A stretch of 64,000 nucleotides of DNA from an uncultured Schlesneria sp. Its GTDB lineage: Bacteria; Planctomycetota; Planctomycetia; Planctomycetales; Planctomycetaceae. Positions 10,847 through 61,859 of this stretch are shown piece after piece (the first letter of the stretch is position 1; each line of letters begins with the position of its first letter). The DNA is taken from the NCBI GenBank assembly GCA_903834925.1, contig CAILLA010000170.1, forward strand, positions 1 through 64,000, written 5' to 3'. The notes beneath the pieces were generated by a model that did not search any database, was not told the origin of the DNA, and was given only the letters and a program-made list of their open reading frames with translations. A program made the position numbers and the translations under genes.

Positions 10847-11132
10847 TTACGCCTTCACAACCCGGCTAGGATCGTTCAGGTTTCCGCCGACGGATTGTGG
10901 ATCATCGATCGGCCTCGGTTGCCGTGTCATCCCTTGGATGACATAGAAAAATACTGGCGTCAGGAAAATCCCGAACAGGGTGACGCCGAGCATGCCCGCA
11001 AAGCCCGCACCGCTACCGATCATCAGCGGAACGCCCCGCAGGATGAAGGCGAACGAAGTCATGATGATCGGCCTTAGTCGCTGAGGGCAGGCTTCCAGTG
11101 TTACTTTGCGACTCGGAAGACCGGCAAGTCTC
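10847..11132 (-). pseudogene. Remnant of the C-terminus of an RND (AcrB-like) permease
   Basis: Reverse strand reads LAGLPSRKVTLEACPQRLRPIIMTSFAFILRGVPLMIGSGAGF|AGMLGVTLFGIFLTPVFFYVIQGM, colinear with the C-terminus of the permease at 13617..16994 but lacking EMRKTLGVAVF and everything upstream. Confidence 0.88.
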
Positions 11133-13616: not shown

Positions 13617-16600
13617 TCAAGCACCCTTTGCAAGATCCCTTGCTTGCGCATCGGGCTGGTGTTCGAAAGCCATCCCTTGGATGACATAAAAAAATACCGG
13701 TGTCAGTAAGATTCCGAACAGGGTGACGCCGAGCATACCCGCAAAAACTGCAACCCCCAGTGTCTTTCGCATTTCGAAACCCGCTCCACTACCGATCATC
13801 AGTGGAACAACCCCTAAAATGAAGGCGAACGAGGTCATGATGATTGGCCTGAGTCGCAGGCGGCAGGCTTCCAAAGTCGCTGCGCGACGGTCCAGACCCG
13901 CAAGACAGCGGGCGCGAGCGAATTCGACGATCAAAATTGCGTTCTTACAGGCCAGGCCGACCAGGACGACGAAGCCGATCTGAGTAAAGATGTTGATGTC
14001 CATTTGAGCCATCAACACACCGACGACCGAGCAAAGCAGACACATCGGCACGACCAGAATCACAGCCAATGGCAGCGACCAGCTTTCGTATTGTGCCGCG
14101 AGTACCAGGAACACGAGCACCACAGCTAACAGGAATGCAAACATCGCCGTACTTCCGGCTTCCAACTGAAGCAGCGCAAGTTCCGTCCACTCCGCTCGCA
14201 TCGAAGGCAATAAGACATCTTTGGAAAGTGCGTTCATTCGATCAATCACCTGCCCGGAACTTGTCCCTGCTGTCCCGTTCACGTTCACAACGGCCGACGG
14301 ATACAGGTTGTAGCGAATCACCATTACGGGGCCGGTCGTTTCTCGAAATGTGGCAACGGAGGCGAGCGGCACAAGTTCGTTGTTGTCACTGCGGACGAGG
14401 ACTCGTTTCAGATCTTTCTCAGCCATGCGAAAATGCGAGTCTGATTGAACATTCACCTGCCATGTTCGACCAAAACGATTGAAATCGTTGACATAGAGCG
14501 AGCCGAACCCGACTTGCAGCGACTCAAACAGCCCAGCCAGCGAAACACCCTTCATCCGTGCCGAGCGTCGATCGATGTCGATGTACAGCCACGGTGTGTC
14601 GGCTCGAAAACTTGAAAACAGGCCCGTCAATCCAGGAATCGACGATCCTTCGGCAACGATTTGCTCGCTGACGCTTTGTAGTGACGTCGCTCCGTTATCA
14701 CCACGATCCTCAACCACCATTTTGAAACCTCCAGCGGTTCCCAGTCCATCCACAGGAGGAGCTCCGAACAGTTTGATCGTTGCTTCAGGAACTTCACGTT
14801 CAAGCGTGGCTTCCAGAGATGCAGAAATCTGATCGGCGGTCAGATGGGTTCGATGATGGAAGTCATCGAGCATTAAGTAGACGGTTCCAAAATTTGGCGC
14901 GTTCGCGCCAAGCACGATCGATTGCCCCGCGATACCGACCGTGTGTTTCACTCCCGGAGTCGTCGCGGCGAGTTCCTCCACTCGTCGCATGACACGATTC
15001 GTCCGATCAAGCGAGGCCGAATCGGGCAACTGGACATTGACCAAAAGGTATCCCTTGTCCTGCGAGGGGATAAAACCCGATGGAGCCAGCTGAAACAAGT
15101 GATACGTCAAATAGACCAACCCGACATACCCCAGTAGAACGACAAAACTCCCTCGCAGAAACAGCCCGACAATCCCGACGTAAACGTCGGTCACCGCATT
15201 GAAACATCGATTGAACCAGCGAAAGAACAGGCCGAGAACATAGTTGATCAAGCTGCAAACGAATTGAGCCGTGACAAGACCGATGAAGGCACCCAACAAC
15301 TTCGACGAGACAATCGCCAACACCGGTTGCAGCGCATTCCCCCAATTCTGTTCCAACCACGGGCCCTCGATGTACCCCAGCCACACTCCTCCCAAAAGGA
15401 TAAGAAAACGGGGAAGGGCTTCTCCCGTTGCATGCGATGCTGCTGTTGCCTGACCCGCAGCATTAACGGCATGTTCATCGTTCGTGCCATGCCGAGGCTT
15501 TAACAGTAACACGGCCAGAGCAGGGCTCAGTGTCAAGGAGTTGAACGCGGAAATCACAGTGGAAATGGCGATTGTCAACGCAAACTGCTGAAAGAAGCGT
15601 CCCACGATCCCGGTGATAAAAACACAGGGGATAAAAACCGCGCTGAGCACGAGGCCGACGGCGATCACGGGGCCGGCAACTTCATCCATCGCGCGAATCG
15701 CCGATTCACGAGGAGTCGCTCCCCCCTCCAGATGGCGTTCGATCGCTTCCACCACGACGATCGCGTCATCGACGACGATTCCAATCGCCAGCACCAGACC
15801 GAACAGCGTCAGCGTATTCAGACTGAATCCAAACGCAATCATCGCTGCAAACGTACCGACGACGGCAACGGGCACCGCGACAAGCGGAATCACTGCAGCT
15901 CGCCAACCTTGCAGGAAGACCAGCACAACAACCGCGACGAGAAACACGGCGTCGCGCAATGCATTGAAGACTTCGTTGACAGACTCCTGAATGAATGGCG
16001 TCGTGTCATAGACGATGTCATAGTCGATCCCCCCCGGAAAACGCTCCTTCAACTCGTCCATCTTGCGTCGAACCAGTTGCGCAGTCCCCAATGCGTTTGA
16101 GCCGGGCAATTGATAAACCGATAAGGCAACCGAGGGCTGTGAATTCAAAGTACAGAGTTGGTCGTATCCGAGAGCCCCCAATTCTGTTCGAGCGACATCT
16201 TTCAATCGGACCAGAGATCCATCCGCTTCCGTTCGCAGCACCATGTCACCAAATTGCTCGTCGTCTGTGAGGCGTCCCAGCGTCGTCATCGTGAACTGGA
16301 ATACCTGGTCCTTCGGTGCCGGGGGTTGTCCAATCTGCCCTGTTGCGACCTGAACGTTTTGTTGTTCGATCGCGCGAACTACGTCCTCTGTTGTGAGACG
16401 ATTGACAGCTAAACGTTCGGGATCGAGCCAGACACGCATGCTGTAATCGCGTTGACCGAGAAACGTGATGTCGCCGACGCCCGGTAGTCGCGAAAGCTCA
16501 TCTCGCAATTGAATTGTCGCGTAGTTACTCAGATAAAGGTTGTCTCGGGTGTTATCGGGTGAAAACAAGTTCACGATCATCAGCACGCTGGGTGACTTTT

Positions 16601-25368: not shown

Positions 25369-25664
25369 GACTGAATGTTTCCCGCGAAGTGAGAATTGTC
25401 AATCCGCATTGTTGCGACAATGCTTCTCTCAAGTGATTTGTTGATCGGCTCGTTCGATTCGAGAAATCCACCGAATGTGGCGTTCATACCACCACATGGT
25501 CGAGCGGTCGAAGTTCTGACGGATCGAGCGGATTCGATTCTGTTTCGTTCACGGAATGCATTTCAATCGAAACGCGTCGTCGCGGCAACAATGGCTGAAT
25601 CATGTAATTCACGTACGAGTTGTGAGACGACTTGACTCAGTAAGTCAAGTTTTGGGATATCTTT

Positions 25665-25833
25665 AAAGTAGCCATCGTCGCGCCGCGTGATGAGCATGCG
25701 TCGGAAGCGATTCAATCGTTGCCAACGCATCGGGACAGATAATGCGTTTGATATCCTGATTTGAAAACACACTGATTGATATTAGCCGGGTTCTCGAACG
25801 ATGCTCATCACGCGGAGCGATGATGGCTACTTT
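25665..25833. mobile_element. MITE-like element, copy A (169 bp, 33-bp terminal inverted repeats)
   Basis: Left AAAGTAGCCATCGTCGCGCCGCGTGATGAGCAT (25665-25697); right ATGCTCATCACGCGGAGCGATGATGGCTACTTT (25801-25833), 31/33 matching. Same length as copy B. Confidence 0.85.
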
Positions 25834-25843
25834 GTTCGAAAAG

Positions 25844-25873
25844 CACTGCTTGACCGAAGACGGTTAAGCAGTG
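25844..25873. repeat. GAAGAC-loop CACTG hairpin, copy 1
   Basis: CACTGCTTGACC-GAAGAC-GGTTAAGCAGTG. Confidence 0.8.
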
Positions 25874-25915
25874 GCACATTCGTTTGAGAAACCAATTTAT
25901 CACAAAGAAAACGCT

Positions 25916-27715
25916 TCAAGGCATTGCCGTCCTCGGCTCGCGAAGCCATTGAATCAGCAGATCCAGCTCTTGCGATGAAAGAAGGTTCAACTCGGGATGC
26001 CCTTGATCGGCGACAAACTCGGGCATGCGATCGTTGCGGTCACCGTAGAATCTGGTATCGCTTGGCTTGGAAATCAGTTGTTTCAGCCAGCTTGATGACG
26101 CATAGCCAGTTAAATCAGGAGCCGTTCCGAGTTCGCCTTGATCGTGGAATCGATGGCAGTCAGTGCATCCCCCACTGGACTTGATCAGTTCTCGACCTTT
26201 GGCAGCATCCGGTGAATCGCTGCCTTCTGTTTGTGCTTCCACAGCGAGCGCAATCGCCATCGCATGGATTTTCTGATTCTTGACTGCGGAATCCTCTTTT
26301 CCATCATCTGCAAACAGGCCCTGAATATGCTGGACCATGTCTCCTTCGCGAAACTTTGTTCGGCCAAAATAATCGTCGGAGGCAATCCGTTCCGAATCCA
26401 GAAATCCCGTGATCCAATCCACCGTTCCAATTCCGTAAAGATTTGGTGCCGATGGCTCGGAGGCAACCAATACCGGGGTCTTAGGACCTGAATGAGAATG
26501 ACAGCTTAGACAATGGCGGGCGAACAATCGCGGGCCTTGTGTCTGAGGATCTCGCCGCAGTAACTCGATGGCTCCTTTTTCTGTAATCGGTTCGGTCTTT
26601 GCCAATTCCAAAGCTCTGGCAGAAAGCTTTTCGAATTCAGCAGTCTCGGCCAGGTATTCGGGATCTTGTCCGTCCTGAAGGAACGAGATCATCGTCAACC
26701 AGGACCATCCTCCAAGACAGGCCACAACGATGACGAGACGGCAAGCCACCGCCAGCCAGTGTGAACGAATGCGATCAACGAATGGTGCCGCCATAAATCC
26801 CAGAAGAAACGCCGTGGGAATGACCATCGTTGCAATGAATTCGGTATTCCCCGAAAAGTGTCGGCGCAACTCGAACAGCCAGCGGAAATACCATTCGGGT
26901 CGAGGGGAAAATGCCAGGTTGGGATCAGCCGGCGCATACAGCGGCGCTCCGTCTTTCCAGGCGAAGAAACTGATGATTCCAATGATGATCGCCAGACTGA
27001 TCATGTTTCTTACCGACTGATACGGCCAATACGTAAGAAGCTCTGGTGTTGACGTTGGTTCTGTGTCGTCAGGTAATCGAAATGGACTATGCTTGACCAC
27101 CTGCTGCAGGTGGATGAAGCACAGTCCTCCGACGAGGACGGGTAACAATCCCACGTGTAGAAAATACAGCCGGGTCAGGGTGAGACTGCCGATGTCCTCA
27201 CCGCCAAACAAGAGTCGGCGAAGAAAGGGCCCAAAGACAGGGGTCGATCCGAGGATATTTCCTTCAACCTGGATCTGCGCAATCCCCTTCTGACTGACAG
27301 AAAGAGGGTTACCCGTAACCGTCCAGACAATCATCATCGGAAACAGAAGCAGTCCGGTGATCCAGACCAGTTCCCTGGGTGCTCGGTAAGCACCGGTGCA
27401 AAGGACTCGCAAAACATGCACGCCGAAAAGAATAATCATGGCGTGCGACGCGTAATGATGAATTCCGCGAAGAAATCGGCCGGCGGACGACTGGTCAATG
27501 AAATGAACGCTGGCCCAGGCACTGGTCATTGACGGACAGTAGGTCGCCATCAACAGCAGTCCCGTGATGCACTGAATTACGAGCAACCACAACAGGCAAC
27601 TGGCACTGGTATAAACCCAGCCAGGACCGTTCGGGAGAATTCGATTACTTATTCGGCTACGGATGAGGCGATAATCCAGACGCAAATCGAGCCAGTCGAC
27701 CCAAGATTGCATCAC
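25916..27715 (-). CDS. Cytochrome b fused to C-terminal di-heme cytochrome c domain
   Basis: Cytochrome b core (RGIHHYASHAMIILFGVHVLRV...); C-terminal CLSCH and CTDCH heme c motifs. Confidence 0.93.
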   Translation of the reverse strand: MMQSWVDWLDLRLDYRLIRSRISNRILPNGPGWVYTSASCLLWLLVIQCITGLLLMATYCPSMTSAWASVHFIDQSSAGRFLRGIHHYASHAMIILFGVHVLRVLCTGAYRAPRELVWITGLLLFPMMIVWTVTGNPLSVSQKGIAQIQVEGNILGSTPVFGPFLRRLLFGGEDIGSLTLTRLYFLHVGLLPVLVGGLCFIHLQQVVKHSPFRLPDDTEPTSTPELLTYWPYQSVRNMISLAIIIGIISFFAWKDGAPLYAPADPNLAFSPRPEWYFRWLFELRRHFSGNTEFIATMVIPTAFLLGFMAAPFVDRIRSHWLAVACRLVIVVACLGGWSWLTMISFLQDGQDPEYLAETAEFEKLSARALELAKTEPITEKGAIELLRRDPQTQGPRLFARHCLSCHSHSGPKTPVLVASEPSAPNLYGIGTVDWITGFLDSERIASDDYFGRTKFREGDMVQHIQGLFADDGKEDSAVKNQKIHAMAIALAVEAQTEGSDSPDAAKGRELIKSSGGCTDCHRFHDQGELGTAPDLTGYASSSWLKQLISKPSDTRFYGDRNDRMPEFVADQGHPELNLLSSQELDLLIQWLREPRTAMP

Positions 27716-30005: not shown

Positions 30006-30095
30006 ATGAACAAAACTGTTGCAGGCTGTGCCCCTGCATCGGACTTCTTCAGGATTGAAACTTGACTCAATGAGTCAAGTTTCAGGAGTTCTTTC

Positions 30096-30264
30096 AAAGT
30101 AGCCATCATCGCTCCGCGTGATGAGCATGCGTCGGAAACGATACAATCGTTGCCTTATCCTCGGAATAGAAACTCCATTTGAATTCCTGATTTGAAAACA
30201 AGCTGATTGATATTCGCCTGATTCTCGAACAATGCTCATCACGCGGAGCGATGATGGCTACTTT
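30096..30264. mobile_element. MITE-like element, copy B (169 bp, perfect 33-bp terminal inverted repeats)
   Basis: Left AAAGTAGCCATCATCGCTCCGCGTGATGAGCAT (30096-30128); right (30232-30264) is its exact reverse complement. Confidence 0.88.
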
Positions 30265-30333
30265 TTTCTGAGGCGAAGCCTCTCTGGAGTCTTCTCCGAC
30301 GCAGTGTCTTCTTTTTTTGAGACACTCGAAGAG

Positions 30334-30363
30334 CACTGCGTGACCGAAGACGGTCATGCAGTG
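30334..30363. repeat. GAAGAC-loop CACTG hairpin, copy 2
   Basis: CACTGCGTGACC-GAAGAC-GGTCATGCAGTG. Confidence 0.8.
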
Positions 30364-30371
30364 GCACTAAG

Positions 30372-30962
30372 TCACCAGACACGCATTCCAGGACCATACA
30401 TCATGGGGCCTCCGAAGCCCGGAGCACCGAATCCGAAACCACCGTAATTCATTGCCCCATAACCCAGCCCACCGTAACCGAGCGTGCTATATCCGATGGA
30501 ACCGTTAGTCAGGTACATCATCCGCTGTGAATTCACTGCGTTCTGAAACACCAGATTCTGAGTCATATAACCTTGCAGGAGCGAACGATCGTACTCTCGT
30601 TTTAAATGATCGCGATAGGCTTCTGCCTGCTGCAGGTCGAGCTTCGCCTGATCCAAAGTCTGCTGCTGGGAAGTTTCCTTCTGCACGATTGAAGATTGAA
30701 CTTTTCGTTCCGACTTTTCTTTGTAGGCCGCGACCAAAGCTCGCATCTGTCGCTCATCCATCCGATTCAGCATCCGCTCGACCTCACCCGATTTCTGAAC
30801 ATCAAACGACATGTCCACAATCAGTCGAGCCAGCAGCCAGGTCCTGAGATCGTCGACGCTTTCGGTCGCGGATGGTGAGGGAACGATGGAGGCCGGAGCA
30901 GGTGGACTTGGAATCCCCGCCTGGCCGAACAACGCGAGACTGACGAGAAGGGAGTGCATCAC
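30372..30962 (-). CDS. Secreted hypothetical protein with Gly/Tyr-rich C-terminus
   Basis: Signal-like N-terminus; coiled-coil middle; GYGGLGYGAMNYGGFGFGAPGFGGPMMYGPG tail. Confidence 0.7.
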   Translation of the reverse strand: MMHSLLVSLALFGQAGIPSPPAPASIVPSPSATESVDDLRTWLLARLIVDMSFDVQKSGEVERMLNRMDERQMRALVAAYKEKSERKVQSSIVQKETSQQQTLDQAKLDLQQAEAYRDHLKREYDRSLLQGYMTQNLVFQNAVNSQRMMYLTNGSIGYSTLGYGGLGYGAMNYGGFGFGAPGFGGPMMYGPGMRVW

Positions 30963-51951: not shown

Positions 51952-52088
51952 AAGTTTTTCACCCCAAAAAAATATACCAAACAATATCACCCGATAGGAT
52001 AAGACGCGATGTCTCCTAAAGTCAATCGTTTCCCCGAAAAGCTTTTGACGTTCTTCGGGAAATCGTTGGAGCACGCAGCGGGCCGACT

Positions 52089-52623
52089 AAACCCCACCTC
52101 CCCTGCGGGGGTGGAAACGGGCCTTTGCCCTAGAAATTTCCATTGCGTCGTTCGGTGAATAAGGACTTCTGCTGGTGCAAAGGCCCGTTAACCGGCTTTG
52201 CCCGTTTAATAGGGCGTGCCCGAATATTCTAAATCTTGCCCGCTTATTCAGAATGACAATTATCGACGATGGTTTTCGGTTTCGCAACTCGCGGTTTAAC
52301 CAGTAGCAGGTACGCCGAGAGCAGAGTGAGTGGGACGGCGAGGAACCAAAAGAAGATTTCCTCGGAATCTTGCAACGGAATTGATATCACCTCTCGAACC
52401 GTCAGGCTCCTTACCCATCCCCCCGTGACAAGGGACGCAAACACCAGCGTCACCACGCCGATCTTTCGTCGCCACGGCTTGAAGAAGTCGCCCATGATGT
52501 TGATTCCGTTAGTAGTCTGTTACGGGCCTTTGCATCAACTCGTGCCACCATTCATCAATACGCTGTAATGCAAATTGCTAGGGCAAAGGCCCGTTAACCA
52601 CCCCCGCAGGGGGGGTGGGGTTT
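52089..52623. mobile_element. ~535-bp element with ~100-bp imperfect terminal inverted repeats
   Basis: Left AAACCCCACCTCCCCTGCGGGGGTGGAAACGGGCCTTTGCCCTAGAAATTT; reverse complement of right end AAACCCCACCCCCCCTGCGGGGGTGGTTAACGGGCCTTTGCCCTAGCAATTT. Similarity continues to ...TGCAAAGGCCCGT in both arms (52089-52190 / 52521-52623). Confidence 0.82.
52244..52495 (-). CDS. 83-aa membrane protein carried within the inverted-repeat element
   Basis: MGDFFKPWRRKIGVVTLVFASLVTGGWVRSL...EEIFFWFLAVPLTLLSAYLLLVKPR: two TM helices with positive-inside flanks. Confidence 0.75.
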   Translation of the reverse strand: MGDFFKPWRRKIGVVTLVFASLVTGGWVRSLTVREVISIPLQDSEEIFFWFLAVPLTLLSAYLLLVKPRVAKPKTIVDNCHSE

Positions 52624-53759
52624 GTCTCTACGTTGCCTGGCCACAAGGTAATCGGCCAGGTTGTGACGCTTGCCAGCGACTTTGCTGATTCAAAATCTGG
52701 TACGAACAGGATCACGTCGTCTGACGTCAGTTCGTTCAGGCTGACGTCTCCGACCGCTCGCCATTCTTGTTCGATCGTCCAGTCGATCCCCGATTCTCCG
52801 ACCGCCAATTGAAAAAACGGACGCTCGTCCTCGGTCAGCGATTGCCAGAGGGCCTCGTCACCATAACGGACAGGCCGAACACCGCGACTCTGCAACCACG
52901 AACGCTTTAAACAGAGACCGTACGGTTCAAAATCCCACCGGACCCGATGAGTGCGATATCGATGAAGTGCCGGAAGATTTTCGAGTGGACAGGCGGTGAA
53001 GCTGACTGTTGGGCATCCACCCCGAATCGTTTTCCCCGAAGCAATCAATCGTTTTTGGACCACAATTCGACGCAAGGTACTTAAGGTGGAGTGGTCGGCA
53101 TCGGGCCGAGATTCGACCAGGCTATCGGCATATTGTTCAAACGATTCGTCAGGCCACGGACCGGGACACGCTCGGGTAGAATGGGCTAAAAACTCCCATC
53201 CCTCGGCGGATGGAAACGGGACAATTTCGTAAACATGAGGAAGAATCGAAGGATATTTGTTGTCAGGTTCCTCGACATTCCGCGAAACGAACTCAATTGG
53301 CCGACATTCTTCCGTCGTCGGTCGCCAGATCTCAGCACCGGCTTTGTAAAGTTCGTCCTTGATGACATCGGGCTGCAAGCCAGGAAGATCAACAAGAACA
53401 ATGCCGCCGCGCCGTTGCTCGATCCGTTCTCTGAGCAATCGATACAGATTCCCTTCCGGCCTCAATTGAAGGACATAAACAAGATCCGCAGCGGCGATCA
53501 ACGCTCGATCACGTGGGGGGATATCGTTGCCACTCGATTGATCGATATAAGGAACCTCAATCGTCTGGCAGTCCACATTCAGTCGCCGCGCAAAATGTCG
53601 GACAAAATCGGTTCCTGCGGTTCCGTCAGCCACAACCAGATTCGATCGATCAATGGCGATTTTTCGTAAGGTTCCACGCAATGCCGCCATCCACGGCTCG
53701 TCAGGAACTACGAGTCGCCTCAGTCGTGACATGACGACGGCAACCGTTGGCGACCTCAT
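52578..53759 (-). CDS. Uncharacterised protein (393 aa), C-terminus encoded by the adjacent element's terminal repeat
   Basis: Long ORF; last residues (N)PTPPAGVVNGPLP* are translated from the right inverted repeat at 52578-52623. Confidence 0.75.
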   Translation of the reverse strand: MRSPTVAVVMSRLRRLVVPDEPWMAALRGTLRKIAIDRSNLVVADGTAGTDFVRHFARRLNVDCQTIEVPYIDQSSGNDIPPRDRALIAAADLVYVLQLRPEGNLYRLLRERIEQRRGGIVLVDLPGLQPDVIKDELYKAGAEIWRPTTEECRPIEFVSRNVEEPDNKYPSILPHVYEIVPFPSAEGWEFLAHSTRACPGPWPDESFEQYADSLVESRPDADHSTLSTLRRIVVQKRLIASGKTIRGGCPTVSFTACPLENLPALHRYRTHRVRWDFEPYGLCLKRSWLQSRGVRPVRYGDEALWQSLTEDERPFFQLAVGESGIDWTIEQEWRAVGDVSLNELTSDDVILFVPDFESAKSLASVTTWPITLWPGNVETNPTPPAGVVNGPLP

Positions 53760-61595: not shown

Positions 61596-61682
61596 CGTGG
61601 CAGACGCTGCTAGCGGCTGTCTTCCGTGGCAGACGCTGATGGCGTCCATCTTCCGTGGCAAACGCTGCTAGCGGGTTGTCCA
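61596..61682. repeat. 29-bp tandem repeat, three units
   Basis: CGTGGCAGACGCTGCTAGCGGCTGTCTTC / CGTGGCAGACGCTGATGGCGTCCATCTTC / CGTGGCAAACGCTGCTAGCGGGTTGTCCA. Confidence 0.88.
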
Positions 61683-61701
61683 CTCTAAATAATTCGGGTG
61701 C

Positions 61702-61731
61702 CACTGGATGACCGTCTTCGGTCAACCAGTG
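61702..61731. repeat. GAAGAC-loop CACTG hairpin, copy 4 (opposite orientation)
   Basis: CACTGGATGACC-GTCTTC-GGTCAACCAGTG. Confidence 0.78.
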
Positions 61732-61760
61732 CTCTTCGATTGGCTCGAAAATACGGAAGA

Positions 61761-61790
61761 CACTGCGTCGAAGACGACTCCGATGCAGTG
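61761..61790. repeat. CACTG hairpin, copy 5 (diverged loop)
   Basis: CACTGCGTCGAA-GACGAC-TCCGATGCAGTG. Confidence 0.65.
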
Positions 61791-61859
61791 GCACTCAACC
61801 CGAACTTTAAGTCTTGACAACGCACTAGCATCCACCGTGATTTTCGGAATTCCTTAATC

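What the first reader, a model, noticed from the sequence alone, without database searches (positions are those of the whole stretch)
25665..25833. MITE-like element copy A: inverted repeats conserved despite a diverged core
Copies A and B are both exactly 169 bp. By hand count the 103-bp cores differ at about 21 positions, while the 66 bp of inverted repeats differ at only 2. Such unequal conservation suggests recent or selected function of the ends (transposase recognition or a long hairpin).
Basis: seen in the sequence. Interest (0 to 1): 0.66.

Follow-up and report, generated by a model that had tools for sequence, protein, structure and literature searches.

The report
REP-doublet mobile repeat with matching transposase
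The 169-base element is one of about 90 copies of a tiny hitch-hiking DNA element (a REPIN: two back-to-back hairpin tags around a drifting spacer) in a Schlesneria-like planctomycete, and sister genomes carry the transposase gene that probably copies it, sitting directly between two such elements.

Summary
The genome holds 177 half-sites (reversed-pattern control: 0). Each arm is a GTAG-tagged imperfect hairpin, that is, a REP, and the two REPs face each other with GTAG outward. That is the layout of a REPIN. In other Planctomycetes/Verrucomicrobia-labelled genomes one stem pair of the arm hairpin occurs as A-T, G-C or T-A, so each arm's own hairpin is maintained. A full-length partner exists. 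In two sister species, one other planctomycete and one Verrucomicrobia-labelled MAG, a REP-associated tyrosine transposase (RAYT) lies next to REPs of this family, between complete doublets in three of them (169-bp doublets in the sister species). In the window's own genome no RAYT was found beside 159 of the 177 half-sites, so its source there is lost, elsewhere or unassembled. Around the 169 bp lie further palindromes (composite about 340 bp), and a second miniature element inserts in the REP loop. Verdict: a new, well-supported member of a known kind (REPIN/RAYT). Mobility is inferred, not shown.

The parts
25665..25833 (+). REPIN copy A (169 bp)
25665..25697 (+). REP arm A-left: GTAG tag plus imperfect hairpin, 2 mismatches to consensus
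25698..25800 (+). core/spacer A, diverged (21/103 differences from B)
25801..25833 (-). REP arm A-right, exact consensus
25630..25650 (+). flanking hairpin hp1 (ACTTGACTCA..TGAGTCAAGT type) of A's composite
25843..25877 (+). outer palindrome module (GCACTGC..GCAGTGGCAC) abutting A, ending 39 bp from the stop of the cytochrome b-like gene 25916-27715 (-)
30096..30264 (+). REPIN copy B (169 bp), both arms exact consensus
30096..30128 (+). REP arm B-left
30232..30264 (-). REP arm B-right
30028..30367 (+). composite B (about 340 bp): outer palindrome half, hp1, REPIN, hp2, outer palindrome hairpin. Absent from G001 and G005; G002 keeps only a 38-bp outer palindrome at this place
30057..30083 (+). 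hp1 of B (GAAACTTGACTCAATGAGTCAAGTTTC)
30270..30282 (+). hp2 of B (GAGGCGAAGCCTC)
30333..30367 (+). outer palindrome hairpin of B, ending 4 bp from the stop of gene 30372-30962 (-)
61698..61794 (-). short form of the outer palindrome element without a REPIN; an abundant repeat of its own in relatives, and absent at this site in G001, G002 and G005

Best explanation
The 169-bp element is a REPIN, a non-autonomous miniature mobile element made of two inverted GTAG-tagged REP hairpins around a weakly constrained spacer. SHOWN: copy number, layout, arm-over-core conservation, covariation in the arm hairpin, intergenic placement, presence/absence at orthologous sites between sister species, and a RAYT (Y1/HUH REP-associated tyrosine transposase) located between copies of the same doublet in sister genomes. 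INFERRED: the RAYT binds the single-stranded GTAG hairpins at both ends, nicks near them and inserts the excised or copied single strand elsewhere. Copies with intact arms are the ones that get propagated, so arms are held to one sequence while the spacer drifts. In the window's genome the copies are either no longer moved or are served by a RAYT that I did not find. The REPIN is often nested in other palindromic repeats, giving mosaic blocks of about 340 bp.
For: 177 half-sites, control 0. Arms 97/95% vs core 70% over 72 copies; unselected arm 0.8-3.4% vs core 15-18% divergence in G000/G002. Arm folds as GTAG plus hairpin with one bulged base (z -3.3 for B; A's left arm alone is weak, z -1.0); whole A folds as a long DNA hairpin (z -7.9). 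GTAG positions about 99% invariant in 138 arms. Arm stem pair 7-24 occurs as G-C 19, A-T 16, T-A 6 in other genomes, 22 double changes vs 8.6 expected; elsewhere A-type and G-type arms face each other. 52 of 54 scorable copies intergenic. A and B sites lack the REPIN in three sister genomes. REPIN-RAYT-REPIN: G001 (doublet, 14 bp, RAYT ATG..stop, 19 bp, doublet), G002 (degenerate doublet, 15 bp, RAYT, 19 bp, doublet, plus a further complete doublet upstream), G307 (between two doublets), G313 (one doublet at the 3' end, a degenerate REP upstream). The RAYT hits NCBIfam REP_Tyr_transpos at 6.5e-14; its best PDB match is TnpA-REP 4er8 (weak, E 0.005); NHVH and YIADNP motifs in G002. Literature: REPIN definition and less conserved spacer PMC3116915; GTAG REPs in Planctomycetes PMC3733652; GTAG and bulge needed by E. 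coli TnpA-REP PMC8266576.
Against: No movement or excision was observed. No RAYT lies beside 159 of 177 half-sites in the window's own genome, and none is in the roughly 1.9 Mb of it (with overlaps) read here. About 150 other Y1 transposase loci in REP-bearing genomes are not flanked on both sides by the REP, many having their own terminal repeats. No target duplication was found for the REPIN. The G001 RAYT has NHVQ instead of NHVH, so that copy may be inactive. The RAYT misses NCBIfam's trusted cut-off (52 vs 80 bits) and G002's scores below the Pfam Y1_Tnp cut-off (20.4 vs 23 bits). The RAYT-REPIN block of G001 and G002 is one orthologous locus, so those two are not independent events.
Confidence: 0.88

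Rival explanations
1. The mobile unit is the larger composite of about 340 bp with GTGCCACTGC/GCAGTGGCAC ends, and the 169-bp REPIN is an internal passenger.
For: Many G000 and G002 copies match the composite end to end; the outer ends vary together between copies (CACTGCAT vs CACGGTTTT types); a short form without the REPIN is abundant and also varies in presence between species.
Against: The REPIN also sits inside a different outer palindrome (AACGCAAAGACGCCAAGG type: L015, L022, L023, L116) and in A, L053, L105 and L107 the flank on at least one side differs right at the arm boundary. At B, G002 has the outer palindrome without the REPIN. In the RAYT loci doublets lie 14-19 bp from the gene without the outer modules in between.
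Confidence: 0.25
2. Classical MITE of a DDE transposon whose transposase binds the 33-bp terminal inverted repeats.
For: Perfect long terminal inverted repeats, short length, no coding capacity.
Against: The full-length relatives carry a Y1/HUH RAYT, not a DDE enzyme. In other genomes the two arms differ (A-type facing G-type) while each keeps its own hairpin, which a terminal-repeat-only model does not predict. No target duplication seen.
Confidence: 0.04
3. A host-selected RNA structure (terminator, attenuator or mRNA stabiliser at gene ends), with arms kept by selection at each site.
For: Very stable fold (z -10.8); mostly intergenic, with convergent 15 vs divergent 5; A and B lie 39 and 4 bp after stop codons.
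Against: No Rfam family matches; A and B sites are empty in sister species with the genes intact; copies occur on either strand relative to tandem genes (20 vs 12); the same arms flank RAYT genes.
Confidence: 0.1
4. Arms are uniform through gene conversion between copies rather than through recognition.
For: Repeats recombine: the RAYT block is inverted relative to its flanking gene between G001 and G002, with REPINs nearby.
Against: Conversion would also homogenise the core, which lies between the arms yet differs by 24% between copies while arms differ by 2-4%. It does not explain compensatory changes inside the arm hairpin.
Confidence: 0.05

Closest known systems
REPINs (REP doublets forming hairpins), Bertels and Rainey 2011, PMC3116915
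   Same: Two inverted REPs with highly conserved ends, less conserved spacer, extragenic, many copies, RAYT nearby.
   Different: Spacing between arm starts about 135 bp against 71 and 110 bp in P. fluorescens SBW25; arms pair over 33 bp; often embedded in other palindromes.
GTAG-tagged REP superfamily, PMC3733652 (includes R. baltica, Planctomycetes)
   Same: GTAG tag, short imperfect stem-loop, head-head dimers, RAYT flanked by REPs in some genomes; other RAYT-like genes flanked by long inverted repeats (TIRYTs), as also seen here.
   Different: Whether this arm sequence equals one of its 24 families could not be checked (consensus list is in a figure that is not held).
E. coli REP/BIME with TnpA-REP (group 2 REPtron), PMC8266576
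   Same: GTAG, bulged stem, Y1 RAYT, REPs mixed with other palindromic motifs into mosaics.
   Different: RAYT only distantly similar (best PDB match 4er8, E 0.005); different arm sequence.
Insertion sequences that target REPs, PMC1525189
   Same: A second element (M, 117 bp) is inserted in the REP arm at one fixed point.
   Different: M is miniature with no gene seen, and leaves an apparent CGGAG duplication at the hairpin loop.

Membership tests
REPIN | GTAG (or related) tetranucleotide 5' of each palindrome | tested here: met
   GTAG positions about 99% in 138 arms
REPIN | Each end is a short palindrome that can fold | tested here: met
   (stem pair 7-24 as G-C/A-T/T-A); A's left arm alone is weak (z -1.0)
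REPIN | Two REPs in inverted orientation, less conserved spacer, whole forms a hairpin | tested here: met
REPIN | Many extragenic copies, mostly doublets | tested here: met
   177 half-sites and about 90 doublets; 52/54 intergenic
REPIN | RAYT gene flanked by the same REPs | tested here: met
   met in G001, G002, G307 and, in degenerate form upstream, G313
REPIN | Cognate RAYT in the same genome | tested here: inconclusive
   not found next to 159 of 177 half-sites in the window's genome; rest not searched with this protein
REPIN | Excision or transposition observed | not testable with these tools
   needs population sequencing or assays
Classical MITE of a DDE transposon | Autonomous DDE element with the same ends | tested here: not met
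   partner found is a Y1/HUH RAYT
Classical MITE of a DDE transposon | Target-site duplication | tested here: inconclusive
   empty-site alignments show none, but flanks are themselves repeats
Known structured RNA (Rfam) | Match to a curated family | tested here: not met
GTAG-REP superfamily | GTAG plus stem 5-13 bp | tested here: met
   ranges from PMC3733652

The most novel reading that the evidence does not exclude
One REP/RAYT lineage keeps a letter-for-letter identical 28-nt recognition hairpin in planctomycete and Verrucomicrobia-labelled genomes although the RAYT itself has diverged to 54-67% identity. This would mean transfer between phyla or unusually rigid protein-hairpin co-constraint, with the hairpins also serving as landing sites for other palindromic elements, so that nested mosaics build up.
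Probability: 0.35. Interest if true: 0.6.

Novelty: new member of a known kind. Interest (0 to 1): 0.42.

Why it matters
It adds a well-documented REPIN population with its likely RAYT in environmental Planctomycetes, a phylum where such repeats have been mentioned but hardly described. Because the same arm works as a tag in genomes of two named phyla, with RAYTs of 54-100% identity, the pair is a natural series for asking which RAYT residues read which hairpin bases. It also warns that these hairpins coincide with contig ends in many MAGs (many copies lie at contig ends).

Tried and rejected
Pfam Y1_Tnp searches first suggested that no transposase was linked; the cognate RAYT scores below or near the Pfam cut-off and was missed until G307 was searched. 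A RAYT in G265 with a REP pair 40 bp from its stop was rejected as cognate because its 81-84% relatives carry their own terminal repeats and no REP. An IS200-like gene with an outer palindrome upstream (L063) was not supported by its relatives. Ribosomal, riboswitch or other Rfam identity was rejected. Divergence at orthologous copies favours arms over core but those loci were partly chosen by their arms, so I rely instead. Literature searches for REPINs in Planctomycetes found only the two papers already in hand.

Full report
WHAT WAS CLAIMED AND CHECKED. A is 25665-25833 and B is 30096-30264, both 169 bp; arms differ at 2/66 and cores at 21/103 positions, p = 0.001. The genome (9.02 Mb, 307 contigs; sister genomes are MAGs named uncultured Schlesneria, Planctomycetaceae) has 177 arm half-sites within 3 mismatches, and none for the reversed pattern. 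72 copies of exactly 169 bp give 97/95% consensus identity in the arms and 70% in the core. To avoid the bias of picking copies by their arms, I took copies with one exact arm and measured the other: it diverges by 0.8-3.4%, the core by 15-18%, in G000 and G002. Mean pairwise difference in G000 is 1.8% for arms and 24% for cores.

ANATOMY. Each arm reads GTAGCCATCATCGCTCCGCGTGATGAGC: a GTAG tag, then a stem CATCA(t)CGC / GCGTGATG with one unpaired base and a TCC loop (z -3.3 for B's arm, only -1.0 for A's mutated left arm). The two arms face each other with GTAG outward. In other genomes the pair inside the stem at positions 7 and 24 is G-C (19), A-T (16) or T-A (6) among 50 distinct arms, 22 double changes against 8.6 expected from the columns (sequences, not events, are counted). 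There an A-type arm usually faces a G-type arm, so arm-to-arm pairing is imperfect while each arm's own hairpin is intact. This points to the single arm as the recognised unit.

SURROUNDINGS. 52 of 54 scorable copies are intergenic: tandem 32, convergent 15, divergent 5 (simple ORF calls, not curated genes). A lies after the stop of a cytochrome b-like gene and before an amino-acid-permease-like gene; B lies between a short hypothetical gene and a dehydrogenase-like gene (names from reading the translations). Both sites lack the element in G001, G002 and G005; at B, G002 keeps a 38-bp palindrome GTGCCACTGCATCGGAGTCTTCTCCGACGCAGTGGCAC. Other copies are shared between species, so the family is older than the species and is still turning over.

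COMPOSITE. Many copies sit in a block of about 340 bp: outer palindrome half, hairpin GAAACTTGACTCA..TGAGTCAAGTTTC, REPIN, hairpin GAGGCAAAGCCTC, outer palindrome hairpin. Both small hairpins show some double changes (14 and 15). The outer palindrome also exists without a REPIN (window 61698-61794) and is abundant in relatives. REPINs occur inside at least two kinds of outer palindrome, and in A, L053, L105 and L107 the flank on at least one side changes right at the arm. I therefore favour the 169 bp as a unit that became part of mosaics, but the alternative that the whole block moves is open.

THE TRANSPOSASE. Pfam searches for Y1 transposases found 10 in the own genome and many in relatives, none bracketed by the arms. 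In G307 (Planctomycetaceae AM_0621) a 220-residue RAYT lies between two doublets of this family. Its relatives among loci in hand are in G001 and G002 (67% identity) and in a MAG labelled Prosthecobacter (54%). In G001 the order is 169-bp doublet, 14 bp, RAYT, 19 bp, 169-bp doublet. In G002 it is doublet, degenerate doublet, 15 bp, RAYT, 19 bp, doublet. The verrucomicrobial-labelled gene has a REP at its very 3' end and a degenerate one upstream. The protein matches NCBIfam REP_Tyr_transpos (6.5e-14, below its trusted cut-off) and, weakly, the solved TnpA-REP 4er8. G002 keeps the NHVH and YIADNP motifs; G001 has NHVQ. The G001/G002 locus is orthologous, with the RAYT block inverted relative to a neighbouring gene. 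In the window's genome 159 of 177 half-sites were examined with flanks and none adjoins this RAYT.

MECHANISM. Known: E. coli TnpA-REP needs GTAG and an unpaired position in the stem and cuts single-stranded DNA beside the REP (PMC8266576); REPINs have conserved ends and less conserved spacers and lie near RAYTs (PMC3116915). The present element has the same parts in the same order, and its likely RAYT is identified in relatives. That this enzyme acts on these arms, and that copies move as 169 bp, is inference.

STATUS. It is a new member of a known kind. GTAG REPs were reported in Planctomycetes before (PMC3733652); whether this exact arm is among the published families could not be checked. 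The unusual side is the identity of the 28-nt arm across genomes labelled Planctomycetes and Verrucomicrobia despite RAYT divergence; MAG labels were not verified.

Noticed in passing
G000 loci L382-L411 (e.g. L384, L401), also L021, L047, L115, L119: A 117-bp element M (ends AGGTTGTCAGTTTTTGTA..TACAAAAACTGACAACCT) is inserted in the loop of this REP in about 20 of 30 listed copies, and in loops of other GTAG-type hairpins in about 5 more, with an apparent CGGAG duplication. No gene for it was sought.
   Followed up: partly
window 61698-61794 and relatives G001, G002, G005: Outer palindrome element (GTGCCACTGC..GCAGTGGCAC) is itself an abundant, species-variable repeat without any REPIN; ends vary together between copies.
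   Followed up: partly
L015, L022, L023, L116: Another palindromic repeat (AACGCAAAGACGCCAAGG..CCTTGGCGTCTTTGCGTT type) hosts REPINs in its centre.
   Followed up: no
L286 4694-5618 vs L083 611-1534: The REPIN-RAYT-REPIN block is inverted relative to the neighbouring gene between two sister species, as if REPINs served as inversion end points.
   Followed up: no
L065, L172, L185, L203-L214, L353-L355: Many planctomycete RAYT-like genes have their own long inverted repeats with GGGGA-type motifs (e.g. AAAAGGGGATAAGTCCAA), like the TIRYTs of PMC3733652.
   Followed up: partly
window 61596-61682: Three tandem 29-bp units CGTGGCAGACGCTGCTAGCGGCTGTCTTC, apparently part of the stretch absent in relatives.
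   Followed up: no
window 52072-52639: Inverted pair of about 80 bp (AAACCCCACCTCCCC..) with TGCAAAGGCCCGTTAACC units; similar sequence flanks REPIN copy L027, so probably another dispersed palindrome.
   Followed up: no
window 10928-11128 and 13671-13904: Two pairs of 78-88% similar coding-like stretches about 2.7 kb apart, suggesting tandem duplicated genes.
   Followed up: no
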